A stretch of 64,000 bases of DNA. Source: Tubulanus polymorphus. Its lineage: Eukaryota; Nemertea; Palaeonemertea; Tubulaniformes; Tubulanidae. Shown here in pieces: positions 2,498 to 28,047 of this stretch (positions are counted from its first letter, which is position 1; every line of letters begins with the position of its first letter). The stretch lies in the NCBI RefSeq assembly GCF_964204645.1, contig NC_134034.1, positions 2,078,072 through 2,142,071 on the forward strand, read 5' to 3'. Under the pieces are notes generated by a model, which searched no databases, was not told the DNA's origin, and worked only from the letters and a program-made list of their open reading frames with translations. The position numbers were made by a program, and so were the translations under genes.

Positions 2498-2503
2498 AAT
2501 AAA
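2498..2503 (+). terminator. AATAAA poly(A) signal
   Basis: This is a canonical AATAAA 510 nt after the stop codon of the gene ending at 1987. A second AATAAA lies near 4532, after a 41-bp minisatellite, so a longer 3' UTR is possible. Confidence 0.4.
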
Positions 2504-2569
2504 GCCACCGGTAAAAGTTCTTTCAAAAGATATTTCTGCTGACTAGACACTATAACACGGATCGGGTTA

Positions 2570-3075
2570 TTATAAAATAGTTCATTGCATCCATGAAGTT
2601 CCCTGATGACATTACTAATTTCATGATGTCATTAATGCATTACATCAAATTGCTCGTAGACAATTTGATGTACTGCATTAATGTAGGCTGACATCTCTTT
2701 CTGGAAGTGTCTATGGACCAGTAATCACTATAAGACAATTTGATGATGTCATAGGGGGATTTATGTAGGGGGCCGTCTTTTCTAAGAGTGTCTATAGATC
2801 AAATTACTAATAGGTGATTTGATGATGTCATCCTTGCGCCATCTTCTCTTAAAGGGTCTGTAGATTGATAAAATGATGTCATAGGGGGTTTTATGGAGGC
2901 AGCCATCTTTTCTTGAAGTGTCTATAGATGAAATATTCATTCCATGATGTCATAGGGGGTTTTATGAAGGCAAACATAATTTTTGTAAGTGTTTAAAGTT
3001 GAAATCATAATTTATGATGTCATAGGGCCATTTTATGGTAGTAGCCATCTTTTCCGGAATTGTCTACCAATGATT
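2570..3075. repeat. Second cluster of the TGATGTCATAGGGGG repeat
   Basis: This holds about six diverged copies of the repeat seen at 1140-1615, here downstream of the stop codon of the first gene. Confidence 0.75.
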
Positions 3076-3509
3076 CCTCAAAAATATGGATGAAATTTAT
3101 ACATATGTTGAACTGGTCTTTTCAGGGTTTATCTTCTCTGAAATTTGTGGGGAGGGAGTACTCTCTGAGATGAGGAGGATTGAAGGGGTAATTCAGTCAT
3201 TTTTTCAAACATTTACCTATTATTTGTACAGCATATTTTTAATTGCTCATTCGTGATTAATGATTAATTTATATATCGATGAAAATTGATCAATTTTCCT
3301 GAAATGTATTCATCATCTTCAAGCCGTCCATCTACCTACCTACCTGTCCACCATGTTTTAAATCATAATAAGATTATCATTATTCATTATTAAGATAATT
3401 ATTAATAATATTGTTAGTAAGTCAGTACTTGTTAAATGTTTTAAGAATGTCCACTTTGTGTCTCATTGTTAACAGTTAGTTCGTTGTACAGATGAAATTT
3501 GTATTACTA

Positions 3510-4005
3510 TGATTGTCCCCGATTGTCGAGAACAATCTCTGAAAATGGTTTTCTGTCCCCTGATTGTCAGGAACAGTCTCTAAAAATAGCATTCTGTCCC
3601 CTGATTGTCAGGAACAGTGTCTGAAAATGGTTAACTGTCCCCTGATTGTCAGGAACAGTCTCTAAAAATAGTATTCTGTCCCCTGATTGACAGGAACAGT
3701 GTCTGAAAATGGTTAACTGTCCCCTGATTGTCAGGAACAGTGTCTGAAAATGGTTTACTATCCCCTGATTGTCAGGAACAGTGTCTGAAAATAGTATTCT
3801 GTCCCCTGATTGTCAGGAACAGTGTCTGAAAATGGTTTACTGTCCCCTGATTGTCAGGAACAGTGTCTGAAAATAGTATTCTGTCCCCTGATTGTTTGGA
3901 ACAGTCTCTGAAAATGTTTAACTGTCCCCAGATTGTCATGAACAGTCTCTAAAATGGTATTCTGTCCCCTGAATGTCAGGAACAGTCTCTAAAATGGTTA
4001 ACTGT
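3510..4005. repeat. 41-bp minisatellite, about 12 copies
   Basis: The unit begins CTGTCCCCTGATTGTCAGG and continues AACAGTGTCTGAAAATGGTTAA. CCTGATTGTCAGG is itself a small inverted repeat. Copies differ by a few substitutions (TCTCT or TGTCT, GGTTAA or AGTATT). It lies in the 3' flank of the first gene. Confidence 0.9.
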
Positions 4006-4009
4006 GGGG

Positions 4010-6240
4010 TCGCTCATGTTCTCATTCCACATAAATGTTAATTGTTAAATAGCCGTCCATGTGTTATAAAAATCGCCAGTCAAATTTTAAATGTAAATAC
4101 ATTCAGAAAAAGTAAATATATCATGTTTTCTTCTCCCTGTTTTACACTGATCTTTTGTCGATATTCTTTTAATTACATGACAACTTAATGTACAATCAAT
4201 TAATTCCATGTCAATAGTCAGATTTTTATTGAATATTTTATCATTTGCATGACTTGATATCTTATTTCATCCATACATTACAATCAATATACGAACGTTT
4301 GGATTTGATTTTAATGTCCGTCCAGAAATTTTTTATCTCATGCATGTAGCTTATACTGTCCGTATTATGTCTGTGTTCCCTGAAAATGGTTTACTGTCCT
4401 CTAATTGTTGCGAGCATTCCAAACTTCATGGTTCCTCTATTGAAAATCAATACAATCGCAGACGATACATCTTTTTAACCGTTATTTTCAAACGAGTCAA
4501 TGTAAATATATACATGTAATATACACTGAGAAATAAAACACTAAATCTTCGTTGAATTTGTGATATTGTTCTTTCACTTTTTTAGTTTTTGAAAGTTGCT
4601 TCTGTTTCCTTGGTTTGTAGGCTAGGGCCAGTTGAACAATCGAGGCTTAGATTGGAGACCTGTTAGACCAACTTAGTTATAGCTATCTCAGTTAATTTAA
4701 GACCGAATCCTAGGATTAGAGCTCACTTCTGGGCTGTAGTCGCCGTTGTACAGCTGGGCCCTCTGTCCACTTGATGGCGCCCTGGTTGGGTTTTGAAGGT
4801 TCTGATTCTTTCCTCAAGGTGGCGTGAACGGTTAAGCTTGAAGGTTCGTATACGTTCCACTAGGTGGAGGAGAAGTCAAGCTGTCCCGAGGACGCAGTGT
4901 TTCACCTCTGATTAAGAAACAGAAATTGTCATCAAACCAGAATAGTCAAAATTCTTCTACACAGCCAATATTCGTTGAGATTTCAGACAAGCAACTAAAG
5001 CAAATTTGTTATCAGAACTCGAAAAACATCCACCTATATCATCATCCTTATCCCAATTAGACGGCCGACGAGAACAGGGAAGCTGGATACAATTCTGTCC
5101 CACCTTTCTCAAGCTGGAATTTCTCGATGAACTACAGTTCCGGTTCTAGTCAGCTTGGAACGACTATCTTTGAAATTACGTACGACTCCTTGCACCATGG
5201 AGAAATGGTCTGACTCTTACGGGTTTTGATTCTGGCCAGTAGATTGAAGGCTATGACTGAACATTCCAATGACTGAACACTCTAATCTGCTCAATCAGGT
5301 GATGAGTTTTGGTCCATATATGATATATGTAAATTCTCTAGTTTTTACGTCTATGGTCCACTCCACTAGCGGCTCCATGATGATGATGATGGCCGGCAGT
5401 GGTTGGAAAATATACATTCTTCCGTTTCGGTTTGGCAGCACCGTTTTAGTTTTAGATGTCTGCTGAGGTCATACGCAACTAAAAGAAACGATTCTTTGTA
5501 GTAAACTACCAAATTTATTAATGTACCTATATACTGACATATATATCTAACATTCCTAGATCCGCGAATCGATCTACATCAATATTCGATTAAAGACATC
5601 AGATTTAAACGACATTAGATCTACGACATTAATGCAAAACGCTTTGAATATCATATATACATACTATCATGAATTGAATGAAATATTCAGAGAAGTAGAT
5701 TTCCCAAATTGACTGAGTTTTAAATCCTGAATGTTTAAGCCTATATACATCTTCACCCGTCAAGGGATTCGAACCCACTACGCTAAAGCTGTTCCCCGAA
5801 CCCCTTGACCTCACGAGTCGTTGGAGTCGTTACTAGCCGACCAGAATCTGGTCGTACCAATCACAGCGCTTGTAACAAACCGTCAGTAGACTTCTGTTGG
5901 TTTTCCCGTTAAATTGACCAATCAGCGAACGTTTTACCGAACAAGGAAGTATTTCGCAAATCGATATATGACGTCACGCGCAACAGCGCCAGTAATGAAA
6001 TCACGCTTCGTGAGGCCAGGGGGCTGGTGGAAGCGAGTTCAGGAGTGATACCGGACCCCTGGCAAGCGAGGATGGGATATGGGAGGTCTATCCGATACAA
6101 AGACATATTAATTTACCAATATATACACGAATATGCTCGCTTAAACTTATAATATCAGTAAATCCAAAAAACTCTCGCTCTCCCCCTAAAAAGTCTACAA
6201 GAGAAATTGAAAAACTATCGATATGTTTGAGTTTAGGTGG
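4010..6240. other. Non-coding flank between the first gene and the Ig-like gene
   Basis: I see no supportable gene here. There is a second AATAAA near 4532 and a tRNA-like B-box region near 5760. A dispersed repeat at 6006-6090 (AGGGGGCTGGTGGAA, then a TACCGGACCCCTGGCAAG-like segment) recurs at 61636-61715. Short open frames here have no splice context or family similarity. Confidence 0.6.
5758..5830 (-). repeat. tRNA-derived SINE-like fragment
   Basis: On the minus strand an A-box-like TAGCGTAGTGG runs directly into a B box, GGTTCGAATCCC. No cloverleaf can be folded, so this is a decayed SINE head and not a tRNA gene. Confidence 0.4.
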
Positions 6241-6269
6241 GGGGGGGGGGGGTTTATTGAGTGGAACTG

Positions 6270-6625
6270 GCCGCGCTATAGACACCGAGAACCAGTTGCA
6301 CAGTCAAGGCTTACGGCCGACTTATAGTTCCATAGCCAAATGCCCGCGTAAGATCTTGGTTCCATAGCCAATCTAATGACTTCAGCTTAAGCTCATTTTG
6401 GTTCTATGACCAGTCTAAGCGCAACTCGATTCTATATAACCAATCTAACGACTAATGACCAATCTTAGCTCATTTTGGTGTTACGTGTAGCAAGAGCCAA
6501 TCTAACAACGTTGGCGTAGGACCAGTGTAAGCTGATTTTGGTTTCATACCCAATCTAACAACTTAAAACCATTCTGAGCTCATTTTGGTTTTTATAACCA
6601 ATCTAACACCTAAGGTAACACTGAC
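6270..6625. mobile_element. Nested copies of a GGCCGGTT-ended MITE
   Basis: Repeated modules like CTAAGCTCATTTTGGTTCTATAGCCAATCTAAC match the interior of the family whose best intact copy is at 43890-44029. At least three partial copies are run together here. A homopolymer G run (about 6240-6252) marks the left edge. Confidence 0.6.
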
Positions 6626-6845: not shown

Positions 6846-9800
6846 TTATTCCTCCTTCTTCCTACGGCGTCTACGTCGTCTGCGTTTACGGTTTTTCCTC
6901 GGTTTGGTTTCGTTTTCATGTTTGTTACGTCGCGGTTGTTTCGTGTGCGCGACATCCAGAAATATCATTTGCATTTCCATGTTTCCGTACGGACTTTTTA
7001 TCCGCACGATGTAGCTACCGGTGTTCTTCCGCGTTACGTTGTGTAGTCTTACCCGGAAGTCTAACCAGCGACTGTAGTACCGCCCGTTTGCAAAGTGTGG
7101 CGCCACCAGTATTGTATACTGCTTCTCTGAAAAATGTATTTCAAATCATTTAAGATAGTCCAATGATATTTCCTTGTCCCTGAAAATGTTCCATCATAGG
7201 CTTGAATCCCGGAAACATTTATGTTGCACGCGTTAATTTCATAAATTTCAATTACTGCAGCAATACAGGATTCCACTTGTGGCAAGTGAGGATCCGCCAA
7301 GTGTCGCTAGTGTGCAGTAGGACATCTACTCATTATTAGCAATTCACTTGTGGCAAGTGAGGATCCAACATGATAAACGAAAGAAAGATTAACGAAGCGA
7401 AATTTTCGCTAAGACCGCGACTGTTAGTCACGCCACCTATACTTACTGTATTTCATTTTCTGCCAGTTATGAAACACGTCAATCGATTTGACTTTACCGA
7501 GAACCTCGCAATACAAATCTACAATAGAAAATGCAAATTAATTCTATAAAGATCGAGATCTGTCCTAAATTTGGCATAACGCGAAACACTGGCGCTAAAA
7601 CCTGACTGAAAACATTTCTGAACAATATCAGCTGGGTTTAGTTGCTAGTGCAATATGCGATCTTTTCAGCTGGGTTTAGTTGCTAGTGCAATATGCGATC
7701 TTTTCAGGCGAGGACATAAACCTTCATTTTCCAATCAAAGCGCCCCCTAGTGTCTGGAAATGGAATTTTGCATTCAAGCGCACGTCGTCAGTAAACTTAA
7801 GAACACGGTACACGCACACTCGCGCAAACTCGCGCGCACACTCGCACACACATACACCTGCCTGATTTCCAATCAGAATAATTTTTAATCGCCTGGTCGC
7901 GCCGCTGAAGTCATCAATTTCCCTCGTCGGTGCAAATCGCAACAATTCCACGTCGGGTTCGATAAAAATTCAATTTCGCACCGTCCGATCGAAACCGTCC
8001 GTAACCCGTCTAATCAAGCAGACGATATTGCTGCGCTGGAAACCTGTCCATTCGAGCGGAATGATCATGTTACGTTGGGCGATTACACAAACGCTTTACG
8101 TCGATTCCGATAACGGAATCAAGACGTTTTACAAGACGGATATTCTGCGACGTTTTATGTCTTAAACGGGGGTCGACAATTGTGTCGATTCAACTCTCCA
8201 AAGGATTTCCTCTCTCATCTCTATTTCTATTTTTGTGTCGTCTACCCAGCATTGATCGATGTCACTGATGACGATGATTTGTTTCTAGTTTTATCACCGT
8301 GTTGTGTATCAAAAATCAAACTTGACGCTTGAAAGAACTTGAATTTTGGAACTTGAGTTCGGTACAAAATATCAAGGCACAGGAGTCCACGTGAAGCACA
8401 GTTAGGACAGGTCTTGTGTTGTTGGGGCGGCCCTAGGAAGGTGTCGACAGGTTCAAGCATAGTATCTTAACTTTATATCTTAAATGCCAGTTTTAGTTAT
8501 CTAGATATCTCCGAATCTAATGTTTTAGGTTCGGTTGGTGAGAAGTTGCAAAATCTTATTTAATGACACCGTTTTTCATCTTCTGATATATCCTGATACT
8601 GTACCAAACAGCATCTATTGAGGAAGCTAAATAACGTACCGACATATGGTATGGGTTTTCGGTCCCAGTTACGCGTTATAGCGTTACGACATCTCCACAA
8701 CATCACATCCGTATCGTACATACGTAAATAATTGTTGATATCCTGAAATTAGTTTCAAGATTTATGATTAGAATAATGAGAAAAAGCTATGAAATATCGT
8801 TCAACACGCTCGTATAGCTAGCACTTTTATTGGCAGCTTTTCTACAAAAGGGAGGGTCAATTTAAAAGCTAAAAAAGGCCTACCTTTGGGGCAAATCAGA
8901 ATAAAAGGCGAAAATATTGCCCCTAAATCTAGGCTAGAGGAAGGTTAATCGTAGGAATTGATGGGACTCGAACCAAAGACATCGAGGCTCGGAGGCCAAC
9001 TAACAACCCACGGGGCCACTTAACCGTGGTGACCAAATATCAAGTTTGTCTGGTTTATGTAGGCGTTCGGTGACCAGCCAGGTTAAGTGACCAATCAGGT
9101 GTGGTGATTTTCAAATGCCCTATTCACCGACAGTTCGGAATTCTCTGCTTACTGGAGGTTTTTTTTTTATCAGGTCCGAGATTTGCAAGGGAAGTCTTCT
9201 TAGGCCAACCTTCCAACAAAAATTCAACATTGAGAAAAAAGATAGAGCATAGGACGACAGTGATTCGAAATAAGACTTTAAAACTCAGGGAAAACATTTA
9301 CATCCGTAAACAATTCCACATGGCTAGAAAAGTTGTATTAAACCAGAAACGTGAATATATACATGCACATGTAGTAGTTTGAGGGTTAGAAACTCTGCCC
9401 TCGCAGGAGTGGGAGCATAATGGGCATGTGCCCCCGTCGCGATCTTCCCGTACGTTTTTGAGACGGCAATATTTTTCAGGGAAATCATTCCACCCATAAC
9501 TGATAGATCAACAGCCCCAATGATAAGCTTATATTCTCATCTATGTCACTGAAGGGCCTGAAAATTCCATTTAAATGCACTGAAACTTCATAATCTTCCA
9601 AACCCCTTCACGGCTTCACGGTCACTAATACGTGGACACTGGCCTTTTCAGTATAGATGCCCTTTTAATTTGTCATGATTTCTTTGCGCTCCTGTTAAAG
9701 TCCGCCTCTGGGTCTTCATAACAGCTTCGACGGGTAAATATTGGCTCATTTACCTGACGAAGCTGCTATGAAGCGAATAACTCGCAAGTTTTGATAAAAT

Positions 9801-12800
9801 CAAGTTGACCTTTACGGCAGATCTAACAGCAGTCTTCGCGTTTGTTTGATAAACAATTTTAGCGGGCCAAAAATGATACATCATAATCGCTACAAGAAAA
9901 AACAAATTTCACAAATAAATCATACGACACGTTTTTCACGAATCGCTTGCACGGTTAATTTTCTTCGATCGCTTCCGAGTCTGAGTTGATTAAAGGAGAG
10001 AAAAAAAAACAATTTGACAGAAATCTAAATCGACATCGCGTCCGTAATCATCGCGCTTCACAGGCGGCGCGGCGATCACGTGACGACGTGGTGCGCACGC
10101 ATGCAGAGCGCGGCGGAAGTAACTAGCTGTCTCGTAATTAGTTAAATTTACGTTCGAACACGGGGAGTAGACAGCGCAAGTTCTGGGAGATGGGGCGTGA
10201 CAACAGACTGACGACGTCATATTAGTCTTTGAACGTCACAGATGTGTGAAGACTGACTACGAAGATGGAACACATATAGATTCAATATTTATCCTGGCTA
10301 CTTCAGGTTCTACACAAACCTTTGCGTTTGGGATCAGTTAAATCATACCGCGTATTGAAATGATCATAGAACAGTGGAACTGACAACGGTGGAACTGGCA
10401 GGGGTTCAGAGTTAACTTTTAAGAAATATAGGATTGAACATATTGACAATAGAATATTTTCTGGGGCCATCTTCACACAAAAATTACACTAACAAAACTA
10501 TGGAACTGGATTCAAAATCAAATTAAAACCCACACAACCGTGGAACTGGATTCAGAGTCAAATTAAACCCACACAACTGTAGAAATGGATTCAGAGTCAA
10601 ATTAAACCCACACGACTGTGGAACTGGATTCAGAGTCAAATTAAACCCACAAAACTGTGGAACTGGATTCAGAGTCAAATTAAACCCACACAACTGTGGA
10701 ACTGGATTCAGAGTCAAATTAAACCCACACAACTGTGGAACTGGATTCAGAGTCAAATTGAAACCCGCACAACTGTGGAACTGGATTCAGAGTCAAATTA
10801 AACCCACACAACTGTGGAACTGGATTCAGAGTCAAATCAAACCCACACAACTGGAACTGGGTTCAGAGTCAAATTAAACCCACACAACTGTAGAACTGGA
10901 TTCGGAGTCAAACTTAACCCACACACATCTGTGAAACTGGGTTCAGAGTCAAATTAAGCCCACACAACTGTCGAATTGGATCCAGAGTCGAATGAAGCCA
11001 AAACCTGTGAAACCGGGTTCAGAGTCTAATTAAACCCACACAACTGTGGAATTGGATCCAGAGTCGAATGAAGCCAAAACCTGTGGAACGTAATCTTCTA
11101 ACGAGACCTATTTTTCATACGATTGTGACGCGTATACGGCTGCTGTTGTTATGAAGTTATCACACTTTACGCGGCCTGTGTATAAATGATGTATTGTTTT
11201 AGATCGCTGATAAATGCCTCCCTCGATCGTATTTAGAAGTGAACGTGATCAGAAATTCTAAATTGGAAAATTCCATCATCCGTTTTTCGTAAAATTACAG
11301 CTCACTAGTGTCTACTGTATCACGCGTGAAACACGTGAAACACGTGCAACAAGGCGCCTTTTCGTTAATTCAGAAATTGGTTTTTACAGATAGCGCGGCG
11401 ATTGCTCATCTTTATACCACTTTCGGGCTTGGGGTAATTTTTCACTTTCATCCTACTGAACGTCCCCTGTAAAAGGTCGTGTACGTAGACCCCTAGGCCC
11501 GGTTTTATAGACTGGTATTGCCTTAAACCTAGTTGTGGCTAACACAATTGAAAATGAATGGAGTTAGCCCCCATGTTAAAAGGTAATACCAGTCTATAAA
11601 ACCGGCCCCTGGGATCCAGTTCTACAGTTTGTGCTGGTTCATTGACTCTGAACACAGTTCCACAGTTGTGTGTGTTTACTTTCACTCTCTTCGTTTTAAG
11701 AGTCCACGGTTAACTTCCCATTGATTGTGGATCCAGTTCCACACACGTTTTTATTTGACTCCCAGCCCAGTAAACCGGTGCTTTTATTTCGAAAAATAAA
11801 CAAAAAGCGTTGTCAGATTTTCTTGATAACAATAATTCTAATCGCCAGACGAACTCGCGTCGGCCATTAGGAACAATGCATCCGTGTTTTAGCGGATTTT
11901 TAGCGATACTCTGTGAGAGACTAAAAGAACTCGACGCGGCGACTACTGATAAAACCTATACCCTTATCGAAACGCCTGCGAGAGATAAGAGATAAACCCT
12001 CAGCCCGCGGATATAAAACAACGTTTTCACGATTGATAAATCTCAATAACTCATCGACGTATTTCCGCTATGCGTTTACTACCGGGCAGACGAAAACCAC
12101 TTGACGATACATAAAGAAAGCAAATTTGATAAAGAATTCAATAACTGCGGAATAAGACCCTAGACCCCGCTAGATATTTACATTAGCCGATTTATTATTT
12201 GCTCGCGTGTCTTCTCGAGACGGTACACAAGAGGTTTCCCTTTCTTATCGCGCCCGAGATGATAAGCTTGTCTCGTAAGCTTTTTCGAATTAGGAAACCT
12301 TCCGAAGCCCTCGGACGACGAGAAGTCAGTTGCGCATCTAACTCTCAGCTGAAATCAGCTCAATTTCGATTTTCTATAAACTCTTGGCTCAAATCTTGGT
12401 TCTGTTAATCAAGTCAGATATTGGGTATAAATTGATCGGAATAGTCCGGCAACCAATCTAGCCCCGATATTGATGACGTAGTGCGCATCCACTAGCACGA
12501 TATTCTAATTGATTATCAAAAATGTATGGAAAATGCATCGGGTGCGTAAGAAAAGGTCCGCAATTTTACCAATGACTGCGACTGCAAAGTGTCTTATTGT
12601 AAAGTAATGTTTATATTCATTGTTTTGATGTTTTCTGATCAGAGTACCAAATATTAAAACCAAATGAGAGCTGACCTCGCATCAAAAGGTCGAGCCTTCG
12701 CCGCTTGGCTTTACCAGGGAAGTGTGACCCTTGCTTTACTGATCTGGTTTAGGCCCACTCATAGTTTATATTGCGCGCCCCTTGGAGGGCCCTAGCCCTA

Positions 12801-15800
12801 CGGGCCTGTTTCACAATTGTAATTGTTATTTTGAAACGTCAATATTGATGACGTAGTCCACATCGACTCGCACAGCCCCTCTTAGATAGCGCGTCGTATA
12901 GCTATCAATGTAAAGAAACATTTTTAACGTTGTCAAAAATGAGTTAAATTGCTATAATTAACTAGAATTTGTGCATGAAAATTCCTGATTTTCCGAAGCG
13001 ATGTTAGTATTAATGATCTATCCGCATAGGGATCACAAGGCCTGAGATACTTTCGGGTGATTAAGCATTAAGAAATAGCAACTTTTCAGAAAACAAGACA
13101 GAGCTAAACAGGAAGTTGATAATCAAGTGTGTTATCGTCATTAGCGATTATTGCTTATCCACAACAGTTAGTATGATTCCGATGATGTCATATAGGTGGA
13201 GCTTTCTTTTCAACCAGGGTTTAAAATAGATGGAAATATGAATTGCGTGTCCGAAATTCGTCCGACCGAAGCTATATTGAAAGGTTTCAGCTATATCTAT
13301 AAATGCCGCGGAGATAGAGCTTTTCCGTTTTGTTTGCGTAGGGCTTCAAAGACACAACGACGCGATACGTTGGTTATCCAGGCATCAATCTGTATTTGTA
13401 ACATGGTACCCTTCAACTCGTCAGGTATTCACCACGTATATTGTAGTGTGAAGTGTGGACGATCAGTTTTTGAAAGTGTGCTGATAAAATGTCTCTAGTC
13501 TGATGTTTGTCGTTCATTCATTTTGAATTTTGGATTTGAAATGTCTCGGGCGAAGTTCTTAACAAATGTGAAGTGTGGATGATCAGTTTTTGAAAAATTA
13601 GCCGATAGAATGTCTCTAGGTCTGGTGTTTGTAGTTCATTTCTAATTTCAAATGTCTCAGGTGAAGCACTGAACACATGTGAAGTGTGGATGATCAGTTT
13701 TTGAAAGTGTGCTGATAAAATGTGTAATGTCTGTAGTTAATCTCCAATGAAAACTATATCAGATGAAGTACTGAACGCGCACGCAGGACTGGACAATCAA
13801 AACCTGGAAGAATGGTGATAAAATATCAAATATCTGCCGACGGGGCAGGCTTCAGATTGACACCTGCACGCGAAAACACAACATCGTGACAAATCAAAAA
13901 TCTAAAAAGAAGTCACAAGAAGAAAGAAGCAAAATCCGTCGTTGTAAGTCACTTCAGGTCTAGTAAAACCGGTCTATTTTTTCCTATCTAACGAATGCTG
14001 ACGTGCGGCACCGTAATGTAATTACCACGTGTTATGAGTCATACGTGTAAGTGCCGCAGACGTCAAACTTTGTGGCGACGACGACGGTGGCGATGATTTT
14101 TTCGTCAAACAAAAATGACTTTGCAGAAATCTTTTGACGGAGAAAGAATCATCACGAACATCTCATCCGCAAGAGAGAGAGAGACACAGCTATCTTTCTT
14201 CGTGTGCGAATATATTGATACTCCGCGACTCAACGTCGCAGCTCAATGTGAAGGGGTTCGACAAGAACCCTGTTTTACAATCACGCGTAATGGGTTCACC
14301 ACGAACCCACGTTTTTTGAATACAAAAAACCCTCAAAACTAAGTATGTTTTTGATAACGTTGGGAGTTCATCAAAAAGCTATGGACCGAGTTAGAATAGT
14401 TGTAACTGTTCTTTTCTTTGCAGCTTTATTCTCATTCAAACTTGTTACCAACAATAAGTTTTAACCTTCAGCGGCCAGTTGCACAGTCGTGGCTTACATT
14501 TGAAACCAGCCTAAGCTCATTTTGGGTATAAGCCAATAGAATATCTTAAGACCAGTCGTAGCCCAATAACCTATCAAACAATTGGGTACGGTCTAGCTAC
14601 CCCCCCCCCAAAAAAAAAATAAACTTTACCGGACCGCCATGTTTGTTCTCGGTCATCACCTTAAATCGGGTTCATTTCCAAGAGTACGCGTAGTACGTGG
14701 GCGCACTATTTCCGGTTCCGGAGTGTAGCTCGAGTAATATTGAATATAATAATATTCGTGATTAATATTAGAATGATATTCATTGTATTTCATGTGGTCA
14801 CAACAGTTTATTAGGTTCCCCGCACTAAGTAAGTATATATAAGGGTCCATTAGTTATATTAATATTTTACTGTCGTGACTGAAAGCAAGTAATTCATTGC
14901 TATGTAATGAATAGCGTTCAGATTTCTACAATCATAGGTAAAAGTAGGTGTAACCTAACTTATTATATACAGGTGCCGACCAAGCGACAAAGCTAATGGT
15001 TTTACAGATATGTTTAGGGCAAATTGATATTCGTTCGAGGTGATATTCTGGGCCCAGTTCCAAAGTCTTCCTTTCCGCGGTCCTAAGCTTATGCCTGGTC
15101 TCACATCTAGTCGTAAGTTGTTGGAATGGCTGCATAACTAAAATGAGCTTAGACTGGTCCTAAGTTGTTAGATTGGCTATAGAACCAAAATGAGCTTAGA
15201 CCGATCAAAATGAGCTTAGACCGATCTAACTGGTTGTTAGAAATGCTATAGAACTAAGTTAGTCTGAAACTGGTCTAAAATTTCAGACAATGACTTAGTG
15301 CAACCCTGTGGTTAGTTTGCTTGGTGAGTTCGATATTAGTACCCGCTCGACTCGTCCGCGTTTCAATAAAATGGCGTCATTCATCATCGTCAAATTGTGT
15401 CGAAAATTTCGACGGTTATTAAAAACTAGCACATCATTTTTTTTCTGATTGTCGGCTGTCGACGGATTCTTTGTTCGAGTAGTGAATACCTCGTAGCGCT
15501 GTTTCATGTTTACACAAAACAGACGAAGATGATTTATTATTTGTTTTGTCACCATCTGAGGAGAGGAAGGAACTGATAATGTTATGACGTTCCGATGTTC
15601 CGATGTTCCTTATATTCTGTCGTCTGCCGTTACAACGTCTCAAGTACAGATTTTACGAGAGTCGCGTTGCTGCCATATAAGTTATAGTTTTCTGGAAACC
15701 CCGCGTATCCGATTGGGGATGCTACTGTGGCAATAGAAGATCCACTGGGGGCGCTAGTGTGAAGTCGGTCTTGCTCATCGGGGGAGGCATGATAACGTTT

Positions 15801-17503
15801 CATGGGTTCGAGTCCCATGACTGCTCGCAGTGTAATAGGATTATTCTTGTGGAAAACCACGACCCCGAACGACGTTCAGCGAGATCTTGCACACGGGTAC
15901 TGACAATGCTGCTGTGGCAATTGTGGATCCACTAGGTGTCGCACTAGTGCGGTTAGTCTTGGCGACTTTTCGAACTACATTTCATTTTTTACCGTACTTT
16001 ACCGAATTATATAAAAACTACTTAAATCCAAATACCCTTTCGGAACCTTGATGTTTTAAAAAGTCCAACTTTTAAACTGGCTTAATTTATCAAATAAGGT
16101 CTAGATGTATATATATCCATCCGGTAGTGTGTGTAAATAGTATGTTGTAAATAACGTTTGTTATATTTCAAAAGACTTTTATTTTCTTTTTTTTGTAAAT
16201 AATTATAAATACTGTTTTTCCTCCATATACCATGGAAATGGTTGGGGTGAAATGAATATTCGTTTTCGTATTCGTATTCAAGTTATTATCATCTTATCTC
16301 ACCACGTAACATGGGTATATGAAACAATGCTACTGATGTACCAATCGATCCGAAATACACAAAGAATAAGGATTCATTTGTAGAACACACGAAATCCCAA
16401 TCAGTTATTTGTATGTTTTCAAAACTCTAGTTATCAGCGGGGCCGCTTTGAAAAAGCTCTATGAACCGTTGTTCGACTGTCTGAGTTGAATTGAAGAAAC
16501 GAAAACGTCACCAAACGAAGACGTTCACAGTCGCCTCAAAGACGATGCTTCGTTCTCCGTTGAGAGCCATTAATTATAGATATCATTGGCGATATAAATG
16601 CGAGTTGGCAGTTTGCTTTTAACAGGATGACAACAACTCGACAACCAGTATAGAGAGATCACAGTGCGGAGTGTGTAATTACGGGGAATCACGGCTAGCT
16701 GTAAGGCACGCCCGACATATCGCACCGCCGTTCAACCCACACCGCAATCATAATAACAGTCGCTACCCTTATACGCTCTCCCTGTTTAACTCCGCCGCAC
16801 GCGCTATTTGAAGTTGTAACGCAGGTCTTGCGCTGCGAAATGGCGCATAAAGATCAGGAGATTATTGCCGGTGCTTATCGCTTAGAGGTCCGTTATTTGC
16901 TGCGCCCGTATCGGCGGATGAACATCAAAAGAGTTTTATCACTATGATCATAACCTAGGCGATATACTGTATGGTCAACCACGTTTAACGGGCTATGTAA
17001 GATCGTTATCATGACGTATTTCGAATCTGACCAATCGTCGCTAGATATAGATATTGCGCAGTTAGCTGAACCGGGGGTCAGCGTAATGCGTGATATACAG
17101 TTACAAGCTCATTTTGTTTCTATGGTCGATCTTACCACTTAAGACCAGTCTGAGCTCATAATGGTTTTATAGCCAATCTATCAACTTAATTAAGACCGGT
17201 CTAACAACTTAAGACCAGCCATTTTGGCTCAGCCAGTCTTTACTCAAATATAACAACTAAACCTTTTGTATATAACAACTTAAAAATGATGAACCATGTG
17301 AACCATGCAACGTTAAGTTCTAGTAAAAAGCCCATCCTAAAATTATAAAAGTTTAAGTTGGGTTCACCTACCTGATCATTCTTGAATGTCACCGACTTTT
17401 TGTTCGACGTTTCATTTTCATGGTTCGAATTATAGACGGCGCCACATGTCGACAAAACAACGAGACACGTGACCGTGACGTAGCTCAGAAAGTTGGCTGC
17501 CAT
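6846..17503 (-). CDS. Secreted Ig-like V-type protein with polyarginine tail (4 coding exons, 195 aa)
   Basis: Coding exons in transcript order are 17503-17372, 8742-8640, 7518-7447 and 7126-6846 (stop TAA 6848-6846). All donors and acceptors are consensus (CAG|GTAGGT, TTTCAG, CG|GTACGT, TTCTATTGTAG, ACA|GTAAGT, TTTTTCAG), and all phases match exactly. Residues 1-22 form a hydrophobic signal peptide. Residues 80-161 look like an Ig V-type fold: B-strand LYCEV (Cys82), C-strand Trp97, and the E-F stretch FRVRLHNVTRKNTGSY. The normal F-strand cysteine (D-x-G-x-Y-x-C) is Val143. The only mature cysteines are 62 and 82. Sequons are at Asn30, Asn132 and Asn174. The tail after about 164 ends in eight consecutive Arg, two Lys and two Glu, suggesting heparin or nucleic-acid binding. 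I do not recognise an orthologue. The gene model is inferred from sequence only. Confidence 0.85.
7245..7365. repeat. CACTTGTGGCAAGTG repeat, partial copies
   Basis: These are copies of a roughly 80-bp repeat built around CACTTGTGGCAAGTGAGG, GATCCACCAGGTGTCGCTAG and TGTGCAGTAGGACATCAACT. They lie in the intron between the last two exons of the Ig-like gene. The family is widespread in the window. Confidence 0.8.
7629..7706. repeat. Perfect 38-bp tandem duplication
   Basis: The sequence starting CAGCTGGGTTTAGTTGCTAG is present twice back to back with no differences, in an intron of the Ig-like gene. It is a recent local duplication. Confidence 0.9.
8948..9034 (-). repeat. tRNA-derived SINE head
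   Basis: On the minus strand, ACGGTTAAGTGGCC resembles an A box and GGTTCGAGTCC (8974-8964) is a B box at tRNA-like spacing. The intervening arms do not fold into a clean cloverleaf, so this is a SINE remnant. It sits in the 5' flank of Ig-gene exon 8742-8640. Confidence 0.5.
10480..11095. repeat. 39-bp minisatellite, about 15 copies
   Basis: The unit is CCACACAACTGTGGAACTGG followed by ATTCAGAGTCAAATTAAA. Later copies are more diverged and shortened. CACAACTGTGGAACTGG is also the terminal inverted repeat of a MITE family found at 43005-43114 and 44276-44600. The array lies in the 8.6-kb second coding intron of the Ig-like gene. Confidence 0.9.
11496..11609. mobile_element. MITE with GGCCCGGTTTTATAGACTGG ends
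   Basis: The left end GGCCCGGTTTTATAGACTGG and the right end CCAGTCTATAAAACCGGCC are near-perfect inverted repeats around an approximately 75-bp interior. Related ends occur near 19440-19550, 35700-35810 and 52352-52443. Confidence 0.75.
13435..13790 (+). repeat. ~105-bp repeat with GTGAAGTGTGGATGATCAG core
   Basis: There are three to four copies of a unit containing GTGAAGTGTGGATGATCAG, TTTTTGAAAGTGTGCTGATA and AAATGTCTCAGGTGAAGCAC. The same family occurs at 25770-26180, 33440-33730 and 33875-33945 on this strand, and inverted at 53880-54335. Confidence 0.85.
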
Positions 17504-18760
17504 ATTTGTGAAATTAACCCCTGTAATATAGAAAAAAAACGATGATACCCAATTAGATAGAAAAACTTTACGCTCGGAGAGTGATCACAATAGCAAAAAG
17601 CCGTTTAGTCAGCCGAAGTACATTGAAAATTGAAGTAAAAAGCCTCAACCATGAATTGCCATTTTCAAAAACTAAGAGAATAGTGATGTTTAGACTCAAG
17701 TCTATGAACCATTTCCAAAAAAAACTAAGAGAATAGTAACGCTTAGACTCAATTCTATAATTGTGGTTTTTTCAGGCGAACTATAGACAATCACTTGTTT
17801 ATGGAAATCATTCAATCTAGACTCGACTAAAGATTCTAGATCTAAAATTTAGATTTCACGCCGTTGTTGACTTTGTGAGGAATTTCACCGCATGCAATAG
17901 AAAACGGTTGAAACATTTTTAAATGAAAATGTTTGGTTTGGTCTAGAGCGCTCTCTCGGACCTGGCACGTGATGGAGAGGTCATTAAGAGGGCTGGGTGT
18001 TAATTAGATATTAAAACGCGCGCAGATGTTTTCGATGGTTATTTTTTCTAGATGAAATAACAAATTTCACTCGACCGAGTTCTTCCCGGGATTCGATATC
18101 CATCTCAACGAGGGGTTATTCCGTACAAACTATCTAATAAACTCATTACGAAGTTATTGGCCCATATATGAGTTGTGACGGGCAGAGGAAGCCGTATATC
18201 TAATAAAAAGTTTATTTTCAAACAGTTTTGAGATTAATTCTAAACCTCATACCCGGAGACAGAGGAACTGAAATAATACGATAATGAATTACAGTAAAAG
18301 TTTCTGCTGATGACGAAATTCAGTCAAAACTTCGCGAAATTGTCAGAATAAACTGTTATATCATCAACTGTGTGGATTTTACTCATTAACTCTGGAATTC
18401 TTGATTTATATCAGGCTGCTACCAGGCCTATGTTCCTGCGCCCCTGTGGGGCAATACCCATTTTTTCGGCAATTATTTCGAAATATGTTTTATGTTTTTC
18501 GAAATATGTAGTTGAATGTTTTGCAGCCTTTAGTTGTTTTTTAAAGAACCCGCGCAGAAAATAAATTCGCGTAACTCAAGCGCTGTATAAAAAGTCATCT
18601 TTTTCTCGTAATGATCATAGCGAAAAAAAGGATTACCTGATATTCATCGTAAAGCGGTCCCTCGGTTCCATCGTGTTTAACAATTTCAGCGCCGACATTC
18701 GACTGCAAACTTCCGAAGCGAATTGAATTGCGCACTGCCTTACTCTCCTAGTCTCTGATC
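17504..18760 (-). other. 5' UTR exon and intron of the Ig-like gene
   Basis: A strong acceptor (TTTCTATATTACAG) ends at 17521, so the start-codon exon runs 17520-17372 with 17 nt of 5' UTR. A matching upstream donor, ATATCAG|GTAATC, ends an exon at 18637. That exon probably extends to about 18760. Its ATGs open only a short upstream ORF, which closes just inside the next exon. Confidence 0.6.
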
Positions 18761-18775
18761 TCGCGAGTCTCTCTC
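18755..18775. promoter_or_regulatory. TCTCGCGAG promoter-type palindrome
   Basis: TCTCGCGAG sits at 18759-18767, next to the presumed first exon of the Ig-like gene and in a CT-rich, CpG-containing stretch. TCTCGCGAGA elements are a known class of TATA-less metazoan core promoter motif. No TATA box is apparent nearby. Confidence 0.35.
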
Positions 18776-19059
18776 TCCGTCTCACTCACTCTCAGTCAGG
18801 CGTTGTTGAAAATCTCCCGAGTCAAATGATCTCACGTACCTCGTCGCCGTACACTTCGCGCTCGGAACAAAAATCGTCGTCGACTTTTTATTATTTCGAA
18901 AGTAGATAAAAAAAACTTGGATTTCGTTTCTACGATTTTTTTTCGTTAAAGGAAATATTTCTGTGTAAATTCCGCTCCGTCGTTCGGAGAGTGGAATTGA
19001 TAATCGGGGATTCTTCCTCCAGCCGTAGACGAACACACGAGCGTGCACGTGACTGTTTG

Positions 19060-21200
19060 TGAAATGCCATCGCTGCGCATGCGTGAATCTAGACGACGCA
19101 CTTCAACTTTCATATGGTTTCGACTATAAGTGGCCGCGGAACCAATAATCGAACGGTCTATATAGGCCTATAGTGCGGTCTTTAGCACGCCTTCGCGGCC
19201 ATCTTGAAACTAGGTCCGGACTACAACGACCGTGCTCAATCCCGTGGTCGACTATTCCCGCACAGGTAGTTCCTACTCTGACATTCGGTTTCACTTAGTT
19301 CAACAATAGTCGACTAACTCCGATTAGGGATTATATTTGGCTTATTATTGATTATTCTTCGCGAACAGATATTCAAAATTGGAAAAAGAATTCTTCGAAA
19401 AATAAAAGTTTTCAGTAGATGAATGTAATAAGTGTAATAATCCTGAGACCAGTTTTATAGACTAGTGACTGGTCAACTTCATCATAGTGGTTTACTTATC
19501 ACCCCGAGTCAAAGTTAAAACAGGTCCATAAATCCAGCCCTTAGTTCAATTCCCGTTTAATAGCCAACGATGTGCCCCTTGAATTCTAGGATTTTGTGGC
19601 CAGTTCCATGAGTGAGAGCCAGTATGACTCACAACTCCATAAATGTCACACGAATCCGTAGAGTTCAGTGGATCGCTGACATCGTCGTGAACTAGGTTTT
19701 TACTCTCAAAAGTGGGACCGGCAAAAAAGGTCCGCTAAACCCGATTTAAGGTTCGGGAAATATGTTCGGAAGTCAGAAAAGTGATTTCGTTTTAGTTCGG
19801 GTGAGTCCTAAGTCCGAATCTGACATGTCCGGAGAAAAGCGAGGCTTACTGTAGATCTATCACTATGGACCCGACAGCGACGAAACGTGCTTGATCTTAT
19901 ACATATTTCGCGACGTTGTGTCAAAACAAACAGACCACGGGTCAGAGATTCTCCAAATATATGTATTCAGATTGCAGACCGACGACAAGTTAGGAAAATA
20001 AAAAACAGCAAGTTTGAAGGACTAACTATTATACGCGCCTTTGATGAAGAAAAAGCAACTGAACTGTCATTGAAGCACGGTCGTTTTTATTTGATTTCCT
20101 ATTCACTTCATTGTATCGCCACCTAGTTTCCTTGCTGTAGTATCATATTTTGTTTTACATTTCACATATTTTATTTGCAAATATTCTCTATTCCTATGTT
20201 ATCCATTATAAAAGCGATTATAAATGTATGTCCACTCTTGTACTGTTTTCCCTGTGTTTTGATGTTAATATTTTATTGCATGTCATTTCCTATGTAACTT
20301 GTATATTATATGGAGCAATAAAATTGAAGTTCAAGTTCAAGTTCAAGTTAAAGAAACTAAAACAAACTTCAATCTTTCATTTAAAGAAGCAGAAATATGC
20401 TTGAGACTAATGACGTAGATGTCTTGCATCCACGTGACCGACGCCATATTGGTTGGCGAACACAATAACTGATTTTCGTGATTGACGCTCAAAGTTTGAT
20501 CGGTTCCTTCACAGTGACGGCTTTCAAGACCAGTAGTTATATAGCCAATGTAACTCTTAATATTTAGGACCACTTTTGGACTTAAGTCTCGAATATGGAC
20601 CCTTTTCACTCAGCACTGATAGTGCTTACCCCTGACGGAGCAAGATTGACTTCACACTAGCACCCCCTAGCGGACTCTCGATGATCACCGTAGCATTGGC
20701 AGTGCGCTTAGAAGATTATATCTTCAAACGAGTGCCATCTAGTGAATCATCGATAGCCACAGTCCGTTCTGCGCGCGTCTCCAAATATCTAGTCAGAACT
20801 TCTAAAATCCTATCTTTTACTTGTCAAATATTTACCGTTTATTGTACACTGTTATTATCATAGTCAGTTTGTTTTCGTTTTTAATATGACCGGTTGTTGT
20901 TCCATTTGTTTTGCCAGACGACGATCGTACGTGTTACCTTTATTTATTAGAGCTGCCAAACCTCGAATGTTCTTGGATTCGCGAGTCAATAGAAAATAAT
21001 ATGCAGTAACGGTTAGACTTGCGACAAAAGATGGCACTTAGCCAATCAATAAGTCTAATTTATGTATCTTGATATGGTTGGGAATAGTTTTACTGTATTT
21101 GCTTTGTTTGTGAAGGGGATAGCGCGTACGCAGTCCCCCACTACCAGAAATTGTACACCCGAGTCTCCCACATTTGGGGAGATCGTATGGGTCAACCAGT
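19060..21200. other. Spacer between Ig-gene promoter and LINE insertion
   Basis: No gene is supported. The stretch contains a MITE-like inverted segment near 19440-19550 and a LINE 3' tail near 20110-20352. Fragments at 20640-20760 of the form CACTAGCACCCCCTAGCGG resemble part of the CACTTG repeat. Confidence 0.55.
20110..20352 (+). mobile_element. 3' end fragment of a non-LTR retroelement with AAGTTC tail
   Basis: An AT-rich stretch ends in GCAATAAAATTGAAGTTCAA and continues as a short AAGTTC tandem. An AATAAA followed directly by a hexameric microsatellite is typical of the 3' ends of CR1/RTE-type LINEs and their SINEs. No reverse transcriptase is visible upstream, so only the tail is present. 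Confidence 0.45.
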
Positions 21201-21241
<41 letters not shown>

Positions 21242-22114
21242 CTCAGATACTACCATATATATTGAAAGCCTAAAAATTTTAAATGATGAGCTGTAGTAAT
21301 TAGAGAGAGATTCGACTATGTCTATAGAAAAGTGTTCAAATAGGTATGTTAAAGTTAAGTTGGCGGCTGATGTTTATTGAGAGCTAAGAGCTAAAAGCAG
21401 TGAAAATGAAGCGAGTTTGATATGGCAGTCGGTCTCGTATCCTAAATATCGGATACGATAGTCCTTCATCATTGGCTTTTTTGTTTTTGCTTAGGGTTAG
21501 GTGTATTTGGATTTTGGTAGGTTAGTTTCCTGTTGTTTGACTATGTGCTGCAAGAAAGGGGGACATTGTAATAGTTAAACAGTTAAATAAGCATTTAAAT
21601 ATTTGAAAAGTTGGAAAAGTCTTCTGCTTTTCGTCTCGAGGAAAGAGGAACCTGAAAAGGAATTAAGAAATTTCTTTGAATTAATGGCGCGCTGCGCTGC
21701 GCTGGCGCTGCAAATTTGCTTTGCTTATTCGCTGGTACCGATAGTAATAATTTGGTGTAGTCAAAGGATTTTCTGTATAAGTTATAGTACGTACAGGTGG
21801 GATAGTACTAAATACGTGGGATGTAATCTTTTATTATTTATCTAATTTTTACGTAATTACATATACGTATAAGAAACACTGTTTCTTTGTCAGTTAGTCT
21901 AGGATAGAGTTTCGTTGGGTATGTTAGCAGGTAGGGAAATTTTTGGGTTTGTGTCGGAAACGACTATAACACAAGTTTCCTGCGGGGTGTATACATTAAG
22001 AATATGTCAAGACGGGTAGCAACAGCATTTAATAAAATAGTGAACGCTGTTCGGGGGTTATCAGGGTGACGGTTCTGAGTATACATATGTATAATTAGGA
22101 TATTATATAGTTTT

Positions 22115-23266
22115 GATCTACAGTATGTTGCTATAGCATTACGCACTGTAGATCTGCATAAGGTTTAATGCCATTTTTAGACAATTTATGCTGGATTACA
22201 GCGTGGTATGATATCTATTATAGAGTGTACGTAGCTATTTTCACAGCAGTACGTGCACAAGCTTATGTATAAGGAATACATAAATATGCTTATATATACA
22301 GGTTCTATATAGAGTTGGTGTCAGGAGTTCATCTACCAGTCATTTCACTTTGGGTATTTATAATAGTATCGTTTGAGGGTGGATTTGGAAGTTAGATCAA
22401 GGGGTATTAGAAGTTTTCTATGATCTGTAATGTGTAGCTATATAATATATTTATATATGCATTACACATAAGACAGGTCTGTTTTTGCTGCTGATCTTTT
22501 TGGGCGGTCGTTCGTATCAAGAGACGCCTGTGCATAATGTTTTCCTTGGTACGAGATAAAAGGTGTACCAGTAATGTATATGCCTTGAATTCCTTTGGGC
22601 TTTGACAAACGCAGATCGTTCATGCAGAGGAGACGGTTGTCAGATATACGTATTCGTCGAAAATTGGTAGCGTAATAATGAACGTTACATTTGGGGTAAT
22701 TTTCAATTGTGGGGTATCAGAGTGAATATTCTGATTTTGCAGAAGTCTAGTCGGGAAACTAGTTTTGATCTATAGTGTGTAGCTTTGTGCATTACACAGT
22801 ACAGATCTGCAGATTTGCCGTTTTCTGAAGTGTACGTAGCTATAAATACAGCAGTACGCACAGATGCATATGTATAAAAATACATACCTATATATGTATA
22901 GTTGGTCTTACAGCCGCTTCGCTTGGGGTTTTACCAAGATAACGTATTATGGTGGTTTATACGGTGTGTAGCTATAATATATGTTGAAGCAGTACACGCC
23001 TGTATTAACCCACAATTTTATACAGCGGTGATAGTCTTTCAGATATTCTATATCTCAGCATGTGTAGTGCAGATACAGAGATTATTGAAAAGTAAAAGGG
23101 AGGTTCCGTTCATGTCAATACATATTTGACTTCCAGGTTTAAACTCCTCTTTTCAAAGCGTATTTGGAGAGGATGGTTCTATAGTATAGTGATCACACAT
23201 ATGAAGAGTTTGGTATTATATGGTTGTGTAGCTATTATTGTACAGCAGTACACACTCTAAACAACC
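22115..23266 (-). ncRNA. Array of related bulged stem-loops in the LINE 3' UTR
   Basis: Seven stem-loops share one design: GTGTA-GCT, a loop, then GC, a two-base bulge (AG or AT), and TACAC. Positions on the + strand are 22115-22154 (outer arms GATCTACAGT and ACTGTAGATC), 22225-22258, 22422-22479, 22767-22807, 22830-22861, 22966-22997 (outer pairing 22954-23010) and 23226-23253. Loops and outer arms vary while pairing is kept, including compensating changes such as GTGTACGTA with TACGTGCAC. They lie wholly within the LINE 3' UTR. The function is unknown; RT recognition of the 3' UTR is one possibility. Confidence 0.55.
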
Positions 23267-23629
23267 CTGTACTTTTATGTACAGTCACGTAGAAACGCCT
23301 GGAGGAAAAGGAAAGAAAAAGTTGCCGTTGGTTTCAATCTTTCTATTAGCAAGCAGAGAGAGGATCATATGGGTTATAGTCTTTACATATTTGAAAGTAG
23401 ATTCGTTACAAATTAGGATCACGCGTGTGTCGAGCCAGGTTCATATTGGGATATTGTATATATGTTTATAAACGTATTACACGCATGTAAAGAGAATATG
23501 ATTTGTGGTGGCGGATTTCCTGAGTTTTAATGTACGGGCATTCAAGCGTAGTATAAATGGTTATAAAGGGTTTGCCCCGATATTATTTTTGAATATGTAT
23601 GAAATTTTAGTGATGTATACGTACATATC

Positions 23630-23690
23630 TACATATACCGACATATACATACGTATTCATATATACACACATATACATATAGACGTTGTG
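23630..23690. repeat. TATACATA-type microsatellite
   Basis: This is an imperfect alternating run of ATACATA, ATATAC and CACACATA just below the LINE stop codon. It is low-complexity sequence inside the LINE 3' UTR. Confidence 0.6.
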
Positions 23691-23742
23691 TTTTTGAAAA
23701 ATAATACCAAAATAATACTGCGTACATAGACTCAACAGTTGT

Positions 23743-25080
23743 TTACGATATATTAGTATTTCTGATTTTATTTTCTCTTCTAAACTTTGCTATTTGATTT
23801 TTAAATTCTAGTATAGGGGGTATAGGTATAACGTTTTTATGCTTAGTTTGGTTTCTGTGTTTCCAAATGATGAATTTATAGGTTGTGATAAATATATTGG
23901 CGTTGTTCTCAGCCTGTTTGTCTTTGTACTTAAATTTAGGATGAAAGAAAAATATCAGTTCCCTATCGAGGGTATTGTTCAATAAGGTATCTGAACTCGT
24001 ATTTTTCAGATATTCAAGCAGAGAAGTTTTTATGGGTTGTATATGTTGACACAGTATAAAGGTGTGATCTAAGGTTTCTTTTTGATTACAGTGTGGGCAG
24101 AAGGCAATGTATTTACCCTTTGACATGGGTAGTACATCATGTACAATCCTGTAGTTCAGTTCCTGGAAGTTGTCAGGCATTGTTTTTGACCAGATGATTT
24201 TCCAAATTTTTTCGTTGATTAGATGAGGGTTTCTTCTTTGGATGTTAATTTTAATTTTTTCAAATTTAATAAGGTGTAGGTATAGAGTTTTCAAAGTGTC
24301 TGTCGGTTGGGTCAGGTCATATCCATTGTCTTTGATCTCTTGTTGTAGTAGATTGAGTATCTGATAGTCTGGTCGAGTGGTTAGTTTTAATGGAATGTGT
24401 CTTATATCAATATTAGGGATAATTTTCTTGATCTTTAATGATCCAAAGGCATAAATAGTGAAGTCAGCCCATTGTGGATATATGTGTTGCATGGTTAGCT
24501 GTTTTAGTCTAATAATTTTTTGGAAGAGGTGTGCTTTGGCTTTTTGTTTTATATTCGTAACTCCACATCCTCCTTTATCTAATGGTAGGTACATTGTTTC
24601 TCGAGATATTGTCGGCATTTTATTGTTCCAAATGAAGTTAAATAATTCTCCTTGGAGTTTTTGTTCATACATTTGGGGGAGTGGGATAAATTTTGTTATG
24701 TACCATAGTGTGCTGAGAATATAAGTGTTAGCTAAAGTCGCTCTCTGTCTAAAGTTGATGTTTCTAATTGTCATTATTTTAAAAGTATTGGTAATTTTTT
24801 CCAAGAGAGGTGTCCATAATTCTGAATTTGTCACTTTCCCAATTTTTAGTCCTAAAATCTTAATAAAGTCTTTAATATATTCTGTCGGGTATATATATTG
24901 TGGTTTAGGGTTTATCGAAAGTATTTCTGTTTTTACGGTATTTATTTTGGAGCCGGAGGCTTTACTGTATTCGTTAAAAGTTTCAAAGGTCGCATGCATC
25001 TCATTTGGAGATCTAATAAAAACATTCGTGTCGTCAGCATATTGGGTTAGTTTAGTTAAATTTTTACCGCCAGGATGCAT
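23743..25080 (-). CDS. LINE ORF2 fragment: reverse transcriptase core to C-terminus
   Basis: This is an uninterrupted 445-codon frame. It begins just before the RT active-site motif QYADDTNVF (the YADD box), continues through the thumb region (KASGSKINTVKTEIL, then ILGLKIG), and includes a conserved LDKGGCGVTNI segment typical of L1/Tx1-type elements. Near the C-terminus CPHCNQKETLDHTFILC matches the cysteine-histidine motif that ends many LINE ORF2 proteins. The frame remains open upstream of the ATG (HCTKTGI), so the ATG is an internal Met and the product is a truncated fragment. It is not a host gene. It would lack endonuclease and the N-terminal RT blocks and so should be inactive. Confidence 0.9.
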   Translation of the reverse strand: MHPGGKNLTKLTQYADDTNVFIRSPNEMHATFETFNEYSKASGSKINTVKTEILSINPKPQYIYPTEYIKDFIKILGLKIGKVTNSELWTPLLEKITNTFKIMTIRNINFRQRATLANTYILSTLWYITKFIPLPQMYEQKLQGELFNFIWNNKMPTISRETMYLPLDKGGCGVTNIKQKAKAHLFQKIIRLKQLTMQHIYPQWADFTIYAFGSLKIKKIIPNIDIRHIPLKLTTRPDYQILNLLQQEIKDNGYDLTQPTDTLKTLYLHLIKFEKIKINIQRRNPHLINEKIWKIIWSKTMPDNFQELNYRIVHDVLPMSKGKYIAFCPHCNQKETLDHTFILCQHIQPIKTSLLEYLKNTSSDTLLNNTLDRELIFFFHPKFKYKDKQAENNANIFITTYKFIIWKHRNQTKHKNVIPIPPILEFKNQIAKFRRENKIRNTNIS

Positions 25081-26658: not shown

Positions 26659-26693
<35 letters not shown>

Positions 26694-27948: not shown

Positions 27949-27952
<4 letters not shown>

Positions 27953-28046: not shown

Positions 28047-28047
<1 letters not shown>

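What the first reader, a model, noticed from the sequence alone, without database searches (positions are those of the whole stretch)
6846..17520. Undescribed secreted Ig-like protein with one canonical Ig cysteine missing and an eight-arginine tail
Four exons, three of them too short to be obvious, join in perfect phase into a 195-residue preprotein. The fold hallmarks are present (B-strand Cys82, C-strand Trp97, the N-T-G-S-Y core), but the F-strand cysteine is Val143. The only other mature cysteine is Cys62, upstream of the usual domain start, so any disulfide must be rewired (62-82). The C-terminus is a run of eight Arg followed by KKEE. This combination of a small V-type domain without the standard disulfide and a polybasic secreted tail matches no family I know and suggests a heparan-sulphate-bound ligand or a nucleic-acid or microbe-binding effector.
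Basis: partly seen in the sequence, partly recalled or inferred. Interest (0 to 1): 0.78.

Follow-up and report, generated by a model that had tools for sequence, protein, structure and literature searches.

The report
Orphan secreted Ig-like protein, basic tail
The sequence holds what looks like a real, single-copy animal gene for a small secreted protein with one immunoglobulin-like domain and a strongly positively charged tail; no close relative turned up in the collections searched, but each of its odd features has a known precedent.

Summary
Four minus-strand exons splice into a 195-residue frame with Cys13/20/62/82, Trp97, Val143 and Arg184-191-KKEE. Codon statistics support a real gene: 15.4 bits against -23.5 (sd 11.0) for stop-free non-coding chains, P 1/3000. 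It appears single copy in a 268-Mb animal genome.

A V-type Ig fold is likely but weakly supported: Pfam V-set E 0.004-0.007, under the cut-off. Own-genome I-set and V-set profiles score it above 2000 and 1999 of 2000 shuffles. A half-domain model was uninformative.

The missing F-strand cysteine is not new by itself: 9 of the 30 best-scoring I-set domains of this genome lack it, and CEACAM IgV domains are proposed to rely on a salt bridge. Ig plus a basic, heparin-binding tail is known from Sema3A.

Most likely this is a lineage-restricted Ig-superfamily ligand tethered to sulphated glycans. Secretion, glycan binding, disulphides, transcripts and orthologues were not tested. The unusual part is the combination.

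The parts
17372..17520 (-). exon 1: 17 nt of 5' untranslated sequence, ATG at 17503-17501, hydrophobic signal-peptide-like start (about residues 1-22) and N-terminal linker with sequon N30; an acceptor precedes 17520, so a further upstream 5' exon is likely
   Evidence: no signal-peptide predictor was run
8640..8742 (-). exon 2 (103 nt, residues 45-78 and the first base of 79): segment with Trp60, Cys62, Trp70, before the B strand
   Evidence: lowest codon score of the four exons
7447..7518 (-). exon 3 (72 nt): putative B strand with Cys82 and C strand with Trp97
6846..7126 (-). exon 4 (281 nt with stop): putative C' to G strands, N-T-G-S-Y, Val143 in the F-strand cysteine position, then basic tail with Arg184-191, KKEE, stop
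6253..6258 (-). possible polyadenylation signal AATAAA (an ATTAAA also starts at 6639 and another AATAAA at 5519)
   Evidence: consensus match only

Best explanation
A real gene, apparently single copy, encodes a small secreted glycoprotein of the immunoglobulin superfamily: signal peptide, short linker, one V-like Ig domain with only the B-strand cysteine, and a flexible Arg/Lys tail. The likely mechanism: the cationic tail (19 K+R against 4 D+E in residues 161-195) binds sulphated glycosaminoglycans and so holds the protein near the secreting cell; the Ig face engages a partner; furin-type convertases can trim the RKRR/RRRR sites and release it. The Ig domain would fold without the standard disulphide. 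Cys62 and Cys82 are either paired with each other or make a disulphide-linked dimer. Shown: exon structure, coding signal, one copy found, charge, sequons N30, N132 and N174. Inferred: Ig fold (about 0.75), secretion, glycosylation, tail flexibility, glycan binding, trimming, cysteine use.
For: Exons, phases and residues; coding signal; splice sites. Ig-like: Pfam V-set E 0.0062, 0.0074 and 0.0036 in three constructs. Own-genome I-set profile: whole protein 6.2 bits against a maximum of 4.9 in 2000 shuffles of residues 45-164. Profile alignment of 45-164 with the same I-set set: score 23.98 against a maximum of 23.82 in 200 shuffles, pairing Cys82 with the B-strand cysteine. Own-genome V-set profile: 11.2 bits, exceeded by 1 of 2000 shuffles, best stretch 79-146. 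All 5 PDB sequences listed for the core (a 91-residue piece from Pro74) are Ig-superfamily proteins, at E 0.79-1.5. The Arg run uses 5 different codons in 8, so it is not a slipped microsatellite. pI about 10.4 and net charge about +25 for residues 24-195. R-x-[KR]-R motifs at 182 and 184-188. Precedent for an Ig plus basic heparin-binding tail with furin sites: Sema3A, passages of PMC8465649.
Against: Each Pfam Ig match is below the curated cut-off, and an unrelated family (DUF5659, E 0.0024 on the N-terminal piece) scores as well as V-set does. Neither profile alignment puts Trp97 on the conserved Trp: it lies 4 columns off and 2 off. One of 2000 shuffles beat the V-set profile score (15.2 bits), and the margin is narrow. 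Single-sequence comparison with the own-genome Ig domains gave nothing significant (best E 0.015, in a set that held one wrongly read locus). The half-domain AlphaFold model is poor (mean pLDDT 64.9, pTM 0.31) and draws the basic tail as a helix (residues 180-194), not as disorder. Its PDB fold search gave no match at E <= 0.001 and no Ig chain among the 50 rows shown of 651. Exon 4 was not among the V-set matches listed for the genome, a capped list. The signal-like stretch has no basic residue before it (sequence). No transcript, no orthologue, no test of glycan binding.
Confidence: 0.47

Rival explanations
1. A cationic secreted defence effector: the tail acts on negatively charged microbial surfaces and the Ig-like part gives recognition or stability. 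It would be lineage-restricted and fast-evolving, which would explain the absence of relatives.
For: High net positive charge; no relative found in the genome. The genome has a tandem V-set cluster elsewhere, so Ig-domain expansion occurs in this animal.
Against: One copy only, unlike typical expanded defence families (general knowledge); the tail is fused to a probable folded domain and has no hydrophobic run. Nothing here tests activity.
Confidence: 0.2
2. Not an Ig domain at all: an orphan beta-rich secreted protein in which N-T-G-S-Y, W and C resemble Ig hallmarks by chance.
For: All Pfam matches are under cut-off; the changed D (Asn137) and F-strand Cys (Val143) remove two hallmarks; Trp97 does not fall on the profile Trp; the fold search of the half-domain showed no Ig.
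Against: Three profile tests beat all or all but one of their shuffles; B-Cys, a Trp and the E-F-G motif come in the right order, with 61 residues from Cys82 to Val143.
Confidence: 0.2
3. The four exons are part of a larger or differently spliced gene (extra exons in the 8.6-kb intron 1 or 5' of 17520), so the protein is not just 195 residues.
For: An acceptor directly before 17520 and no stop between it and the ATG; intron 1 is 8.6 kb.
Against: Good ATG context (A at -3, G at +4) and a hydrophobic stretch right after it; phases fit without further exons.
Confidence: 0.1
4. No functional gene: a chance chain of open frames or a decaying pseudogene.
For: No transcript or orthologue evidence; an open antisense frame of 115 aa covers exon 4.
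Against: GC-position spread reached by 0 of 5000 draws and codon score by 1 of 3000 control chains, good splice sites, no stop or frameshift; the antisense frame scores as non-coding.
Confidence: 0.03

Closest known systems
Class 3 semaphorins (Sema3A), Ig domain plus C-terminal basic tail
   Same: Secreted protein with an Ig domain followed by a disordered basic tail with furin sites that binds heparin with high affinity, and a cysteine used for disulphide dimers (passages of PMC8465649)
   Different: No semaphorin family among the Pfam matches of the 195-residue model; the semaphorin propeller and PSI domain as defining parts are recalled
CEACAM N-terminal IgV domains
   Same: V-type domain proposed to be held by an Arg-Asp salt bridge where IgC domains have cysteines (passages of PMC4079198); CEACAM1 is the first-listed weak PDB match of the core (E 0.79)
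   Different: Here an Arg (R117) aligns with the V-set Arg but the Asp is Asn137; E 0.79 is no evidence of homology
I-set domains of titin/twitchin-like giants (that naming of the own-genome loci is recalled, not tested)
   Same: 9 of the 30 best-scoring own-genome I-set domains (of 152 matches) lack the F-strand cysteine, 5 of them with Val there; twitchin 1koa is the first-listed weak PDB match of the whole protein (E 0.6)
   Different: Those are multi-domain proteins (recalled); the present model has one domain, a signal-like start and a basic tail
Neuregulin/Vein Ig-EGF ligands (recalled, considered)
   Same: Secreted ligand with an Ig domain
   Different: No EGF domain follows; exon 4 ends in the basic tail and a stop

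Membership tests
Immunoglobulin superfamily, V-set (PF07686) | Profile score above Pfam's gathering cut-off (26 bits) | tested here: not met
   17.2, 16.9 and 17.9 bits in three constructs
Immunoglobulin superfamily, V-set (PF07686) | B-strand Cys and C-strand Trp in place before a G-x-Y motif | tested here: inconclusive
   C82, W97, G139-S-Y141 come in the right order; own-genome profiles align C82 and the G-x-Y motif, but W97 lies 4 or 2 columns off the profile Trp
Immunoglobulin superfamily, V-set (PF07686) | F-strand Cys pairing with the B-strand Cys | tested here: not met
   Val143; not strictly defining, 9 of 30 own-genome I-set domains examined lack it
Immunoglobulin superfamily, V-set (PF07686) | Two-sheet Ig sandwich | tested here: inconclusive
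Class 3 semaphorin | Semaphorin propeller and PSI domain before the Ig domain | tested here: not met
   195-aa model with a signal-like start and a short linker before the domain; no such Pfam match
Class 3 semaphorin | Basic tail with convertase sites after an Ig domain | tested here: met
   R-x-[KR]-R motifs at 182 and 184-188; sequence motif only, and the Ig domain itself is probable, not shown
Glycosaminoglycan-binding secreted protein | Binds heparin or heparan sulphate | not testable with these tools
   Charge only: 19 K+R against 4 D+E in 161-195
   No animal proteome or further animal genome at hand; no paralogue found in the own genome, no relative of exon 4 in viral contigs

The most novel reading that the evidence does not exclude
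An undescribed family of glycan-tethered, single-IgV secreted ligands that dispense with the core disulphide and use the freed cysteine, with Cys62, for covalent dimerisation, released from the matrix by convertase trimming of the poly-Arg tail.
Probability: 0.2. Interest if true: 0.55.

Novelty: new variant of a known kind. Interest (0 to 1): 0.33.

Why it matters
If true it is a compact natural example of an Ig-fold ligand with its own matrix anchor and no core disulphide, useful for understanding how lineage-specific secreted signals arise from the Ig fold. It would not overturn known principles, because each trait is known separately.

Tried and rejected
Microsatellite origin of the Arg run: rejected, 5 different Arg codons in 8. 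Antisense frame as the gene: rejected, codon score -12.7 bits and GC highest at codon position 2. Paralogues in the genome: none found; the only match outside the gene has E 4.4 (which scores only its best candidates, 5 of 5 here). Viral relatives of exon 4: 85 pattern matches, none confirmed. NCBIfam: nothing. PHROGs: only E 0.012 and 0.15, unknown function. Other weak Pfam matches: DUF5659, V-ATPase_su_f, Neuraminidase, all under cut-off. Fold of exon 4 alone and its PDB search: uninformative. Literature: six searches of an open-access library, of which I saw the listings; no listed title or abstract start describes such a protein. This is no proof of absence from print. Of three papers I saw passages only (PMC8465649; PMC4079198; PMC11999971).

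Noted but weak: the pentapeptide HENET, holding an N-glycan sequon, occurs in both linkers (28-32 and 172-176); P 0.001 by shuffling the linkers, chosen after the fact.

Errors corrected: one locus each was read on the wrong strand (L049, L062). Both analyses were redone. The codon score rose from 9.5 to 15.4 bits, the latter with the 12 V-set loci added. The V-set profile result changed from not above shuffles (4.3 bits, at least five of 2000 shuffles higher) to above 1999 of 2000 (11.2 bits). One search dropped 5 of the 64 loci L007-L070 for internal stops (L042, L053, L054, L055, L057). The non-coding control stretches (window 2500-6500, 9000-17000, 18000-33000) include a LINE fragment and, near 30.3 kb, a possible exon of the neighbouring gene. 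One search used a wrong frame offset and was not used for results.

Full report
Observation. The window is a stretch of contig C10 of a 267.8-Mb, 77-contig genome. Of nine open frames sent to Pfam, five gave matches at E <= 0.01: an RNase_T exon (34.0-34.4 kb), two UCH_1 frames (40.9-41.7 kb), a dynamitin exon (56.8-57.1 kb) and a reverse transcriptase; together the first three look like PAN2 (name recalled). On the minus strand the exons 17520-17372, 8742-8640, 7518-7447 and 7126-6846 splice with GT-AG introns in phases 0, 1 and 1 into 195 codons and a TAA.

Is it a gene? Each exon has exactly one open sense frame out of three, and splicing joins those four. GC by codon position is 0.44, 0.36 and 0.56, and each exon alone is highest at position 3; the overall spread of 0.20 was reached by none of 5000 sets of four random pieces from outside the exons. 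With a codon table from 59 in-frame kinase, I-set and V-set exons of the same genome (59 of 64 loci L007-L070; five with stops dropped), the query scores 15.4 bits; 3000 chains of stop-free non-coding pieces of about the same lengths average -23.5 with sd 11.0, and 1 of 3000 reaches the query; 20 of 59 training exons, each left out in turn, score lower per codon. Splice sites stand at the 96th to 99.9th percentile of all GT or AG on that strand (weights recalled). The start codon has A at -3 and G at +4. It appears single copy: the four exons are each found once, and the only other hit has E 4.4.

Is it an Ig domain? Pfam gives V-set at E 0.0036-0.0074, 17-18 bits under a cut-off of 26. DUF5659 reaches E 0.0024 on the N-terminal piece, so such E-values alone are not safe. 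Tests with profiles made from this genome: I-set 6.2 bits against at most 4.9 in 2000 shuffles; profile alignment score 23.98 against at most 23.82 in 200 shuffles; V-set 11.2 bits, exceeded by 1 of 2000 shuffles, best stretch 79-146 with Cys82 on the B-strand Cys. Against it, Trp97 lies 4 columns or 2 columns off the profile Trp. The five PDB sequences listed for the core are two CEACAM1 constructs, CEA, JAM-A and an antibody heavy chain, at E 0.79-1.5. The distance from Cys82 to Val143 is 61 residues; by general knowledge that lies between I-set and full V-set. Structure prediction was possible only for exon 4, half a domain: strands that convert to 105-110, 124-135, 140-147 and 150-157, two short ones between, and a helix over the basic tail; pLDDT 64.9, pTM 0.31; no Ig in the 50 fold-search rows shown. 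I judge the Ig assignment about 75% likely.

How odd are the features? Among the 30 best-scoring I-set matches of this genome (30 of 152), 9 lack the F-strand cysteine (Val 5, Ala 2, Ile 1, Leu 1; letters printed). CEACAM IgV domains are proposed to be stabilised by an Arg-Asp salt bridge in place of the cysteines (passages of PMC4079198); here R117 aligns with the V-set Arg but the Asp is Asn137, so even that bridge would be weakened. Sema3A has an Ig domain followed by a disordered basic tail with furin sites, high-affinity heparin binding and a cysteine for dimers (passages of PMC8465649). What remains unusual is the combination in one single-domain orphan.

Mechanism. Most likely the protein is secreted, N-glycosylated, held on sulphated glycans by its tail, and acts through its Ig face; convertases may trim the tail. 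If Cys13 and Cys20 leave with the signal peptide, the mature protein has two cysteines. By general knowledge of V domains the A and B strands lie side by side, so a 62-82 bond is possible but not the usual geometry; disulphide dimers are an equal option. None of this was tested.

Verdict. A correct and careful observation of what is probably a real orphan IgSF gene; the interpretation as an unknown family stays open, and the separate traits are known. Orthologue and transcript data, not available here, would settle most of it.

Noticed in passing
   Followed up: no
window 23743-25134, minus: Truncated LINE-type reverse transcriptase frame of 463 aa (RVT_1 E 1.8e-6, 28.2 bits, just under the cut-off of 29.6; zf-RVT E 0.002).
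   Followed up: partly
window 10481-11069 and 3514-3999: Tandem arrays of 39 bp x 15 (inside intron 1 of the gene) and 41 bp x 12.
   Followed up: no
window about 13.5-13.7 kb, 25.8-26.1 kb, 33.4-33.8 kb, minus: A dispersed repeat recurs at three places; its frames read alike ([12 protein letters not shown] and similar).
   Followed up: no
window 17408-17422 and 6906-6920, minus: The same pentapeptide HENET with an N-glycan sequon (residues 28-32 and 172-176) stands in both linkers that flank the domain (P 0.001 by shuffling, post hoc).
   Followed up: partly
window 34.0-34.4 and 40.9-41.7 kb, minus; 56.75-57.08 kb, plus: Neighbouring genes: RNase_T and UCH_1 frames (PAN2-like, name recalled) and a dynamitin exon.
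   Followed up: partly
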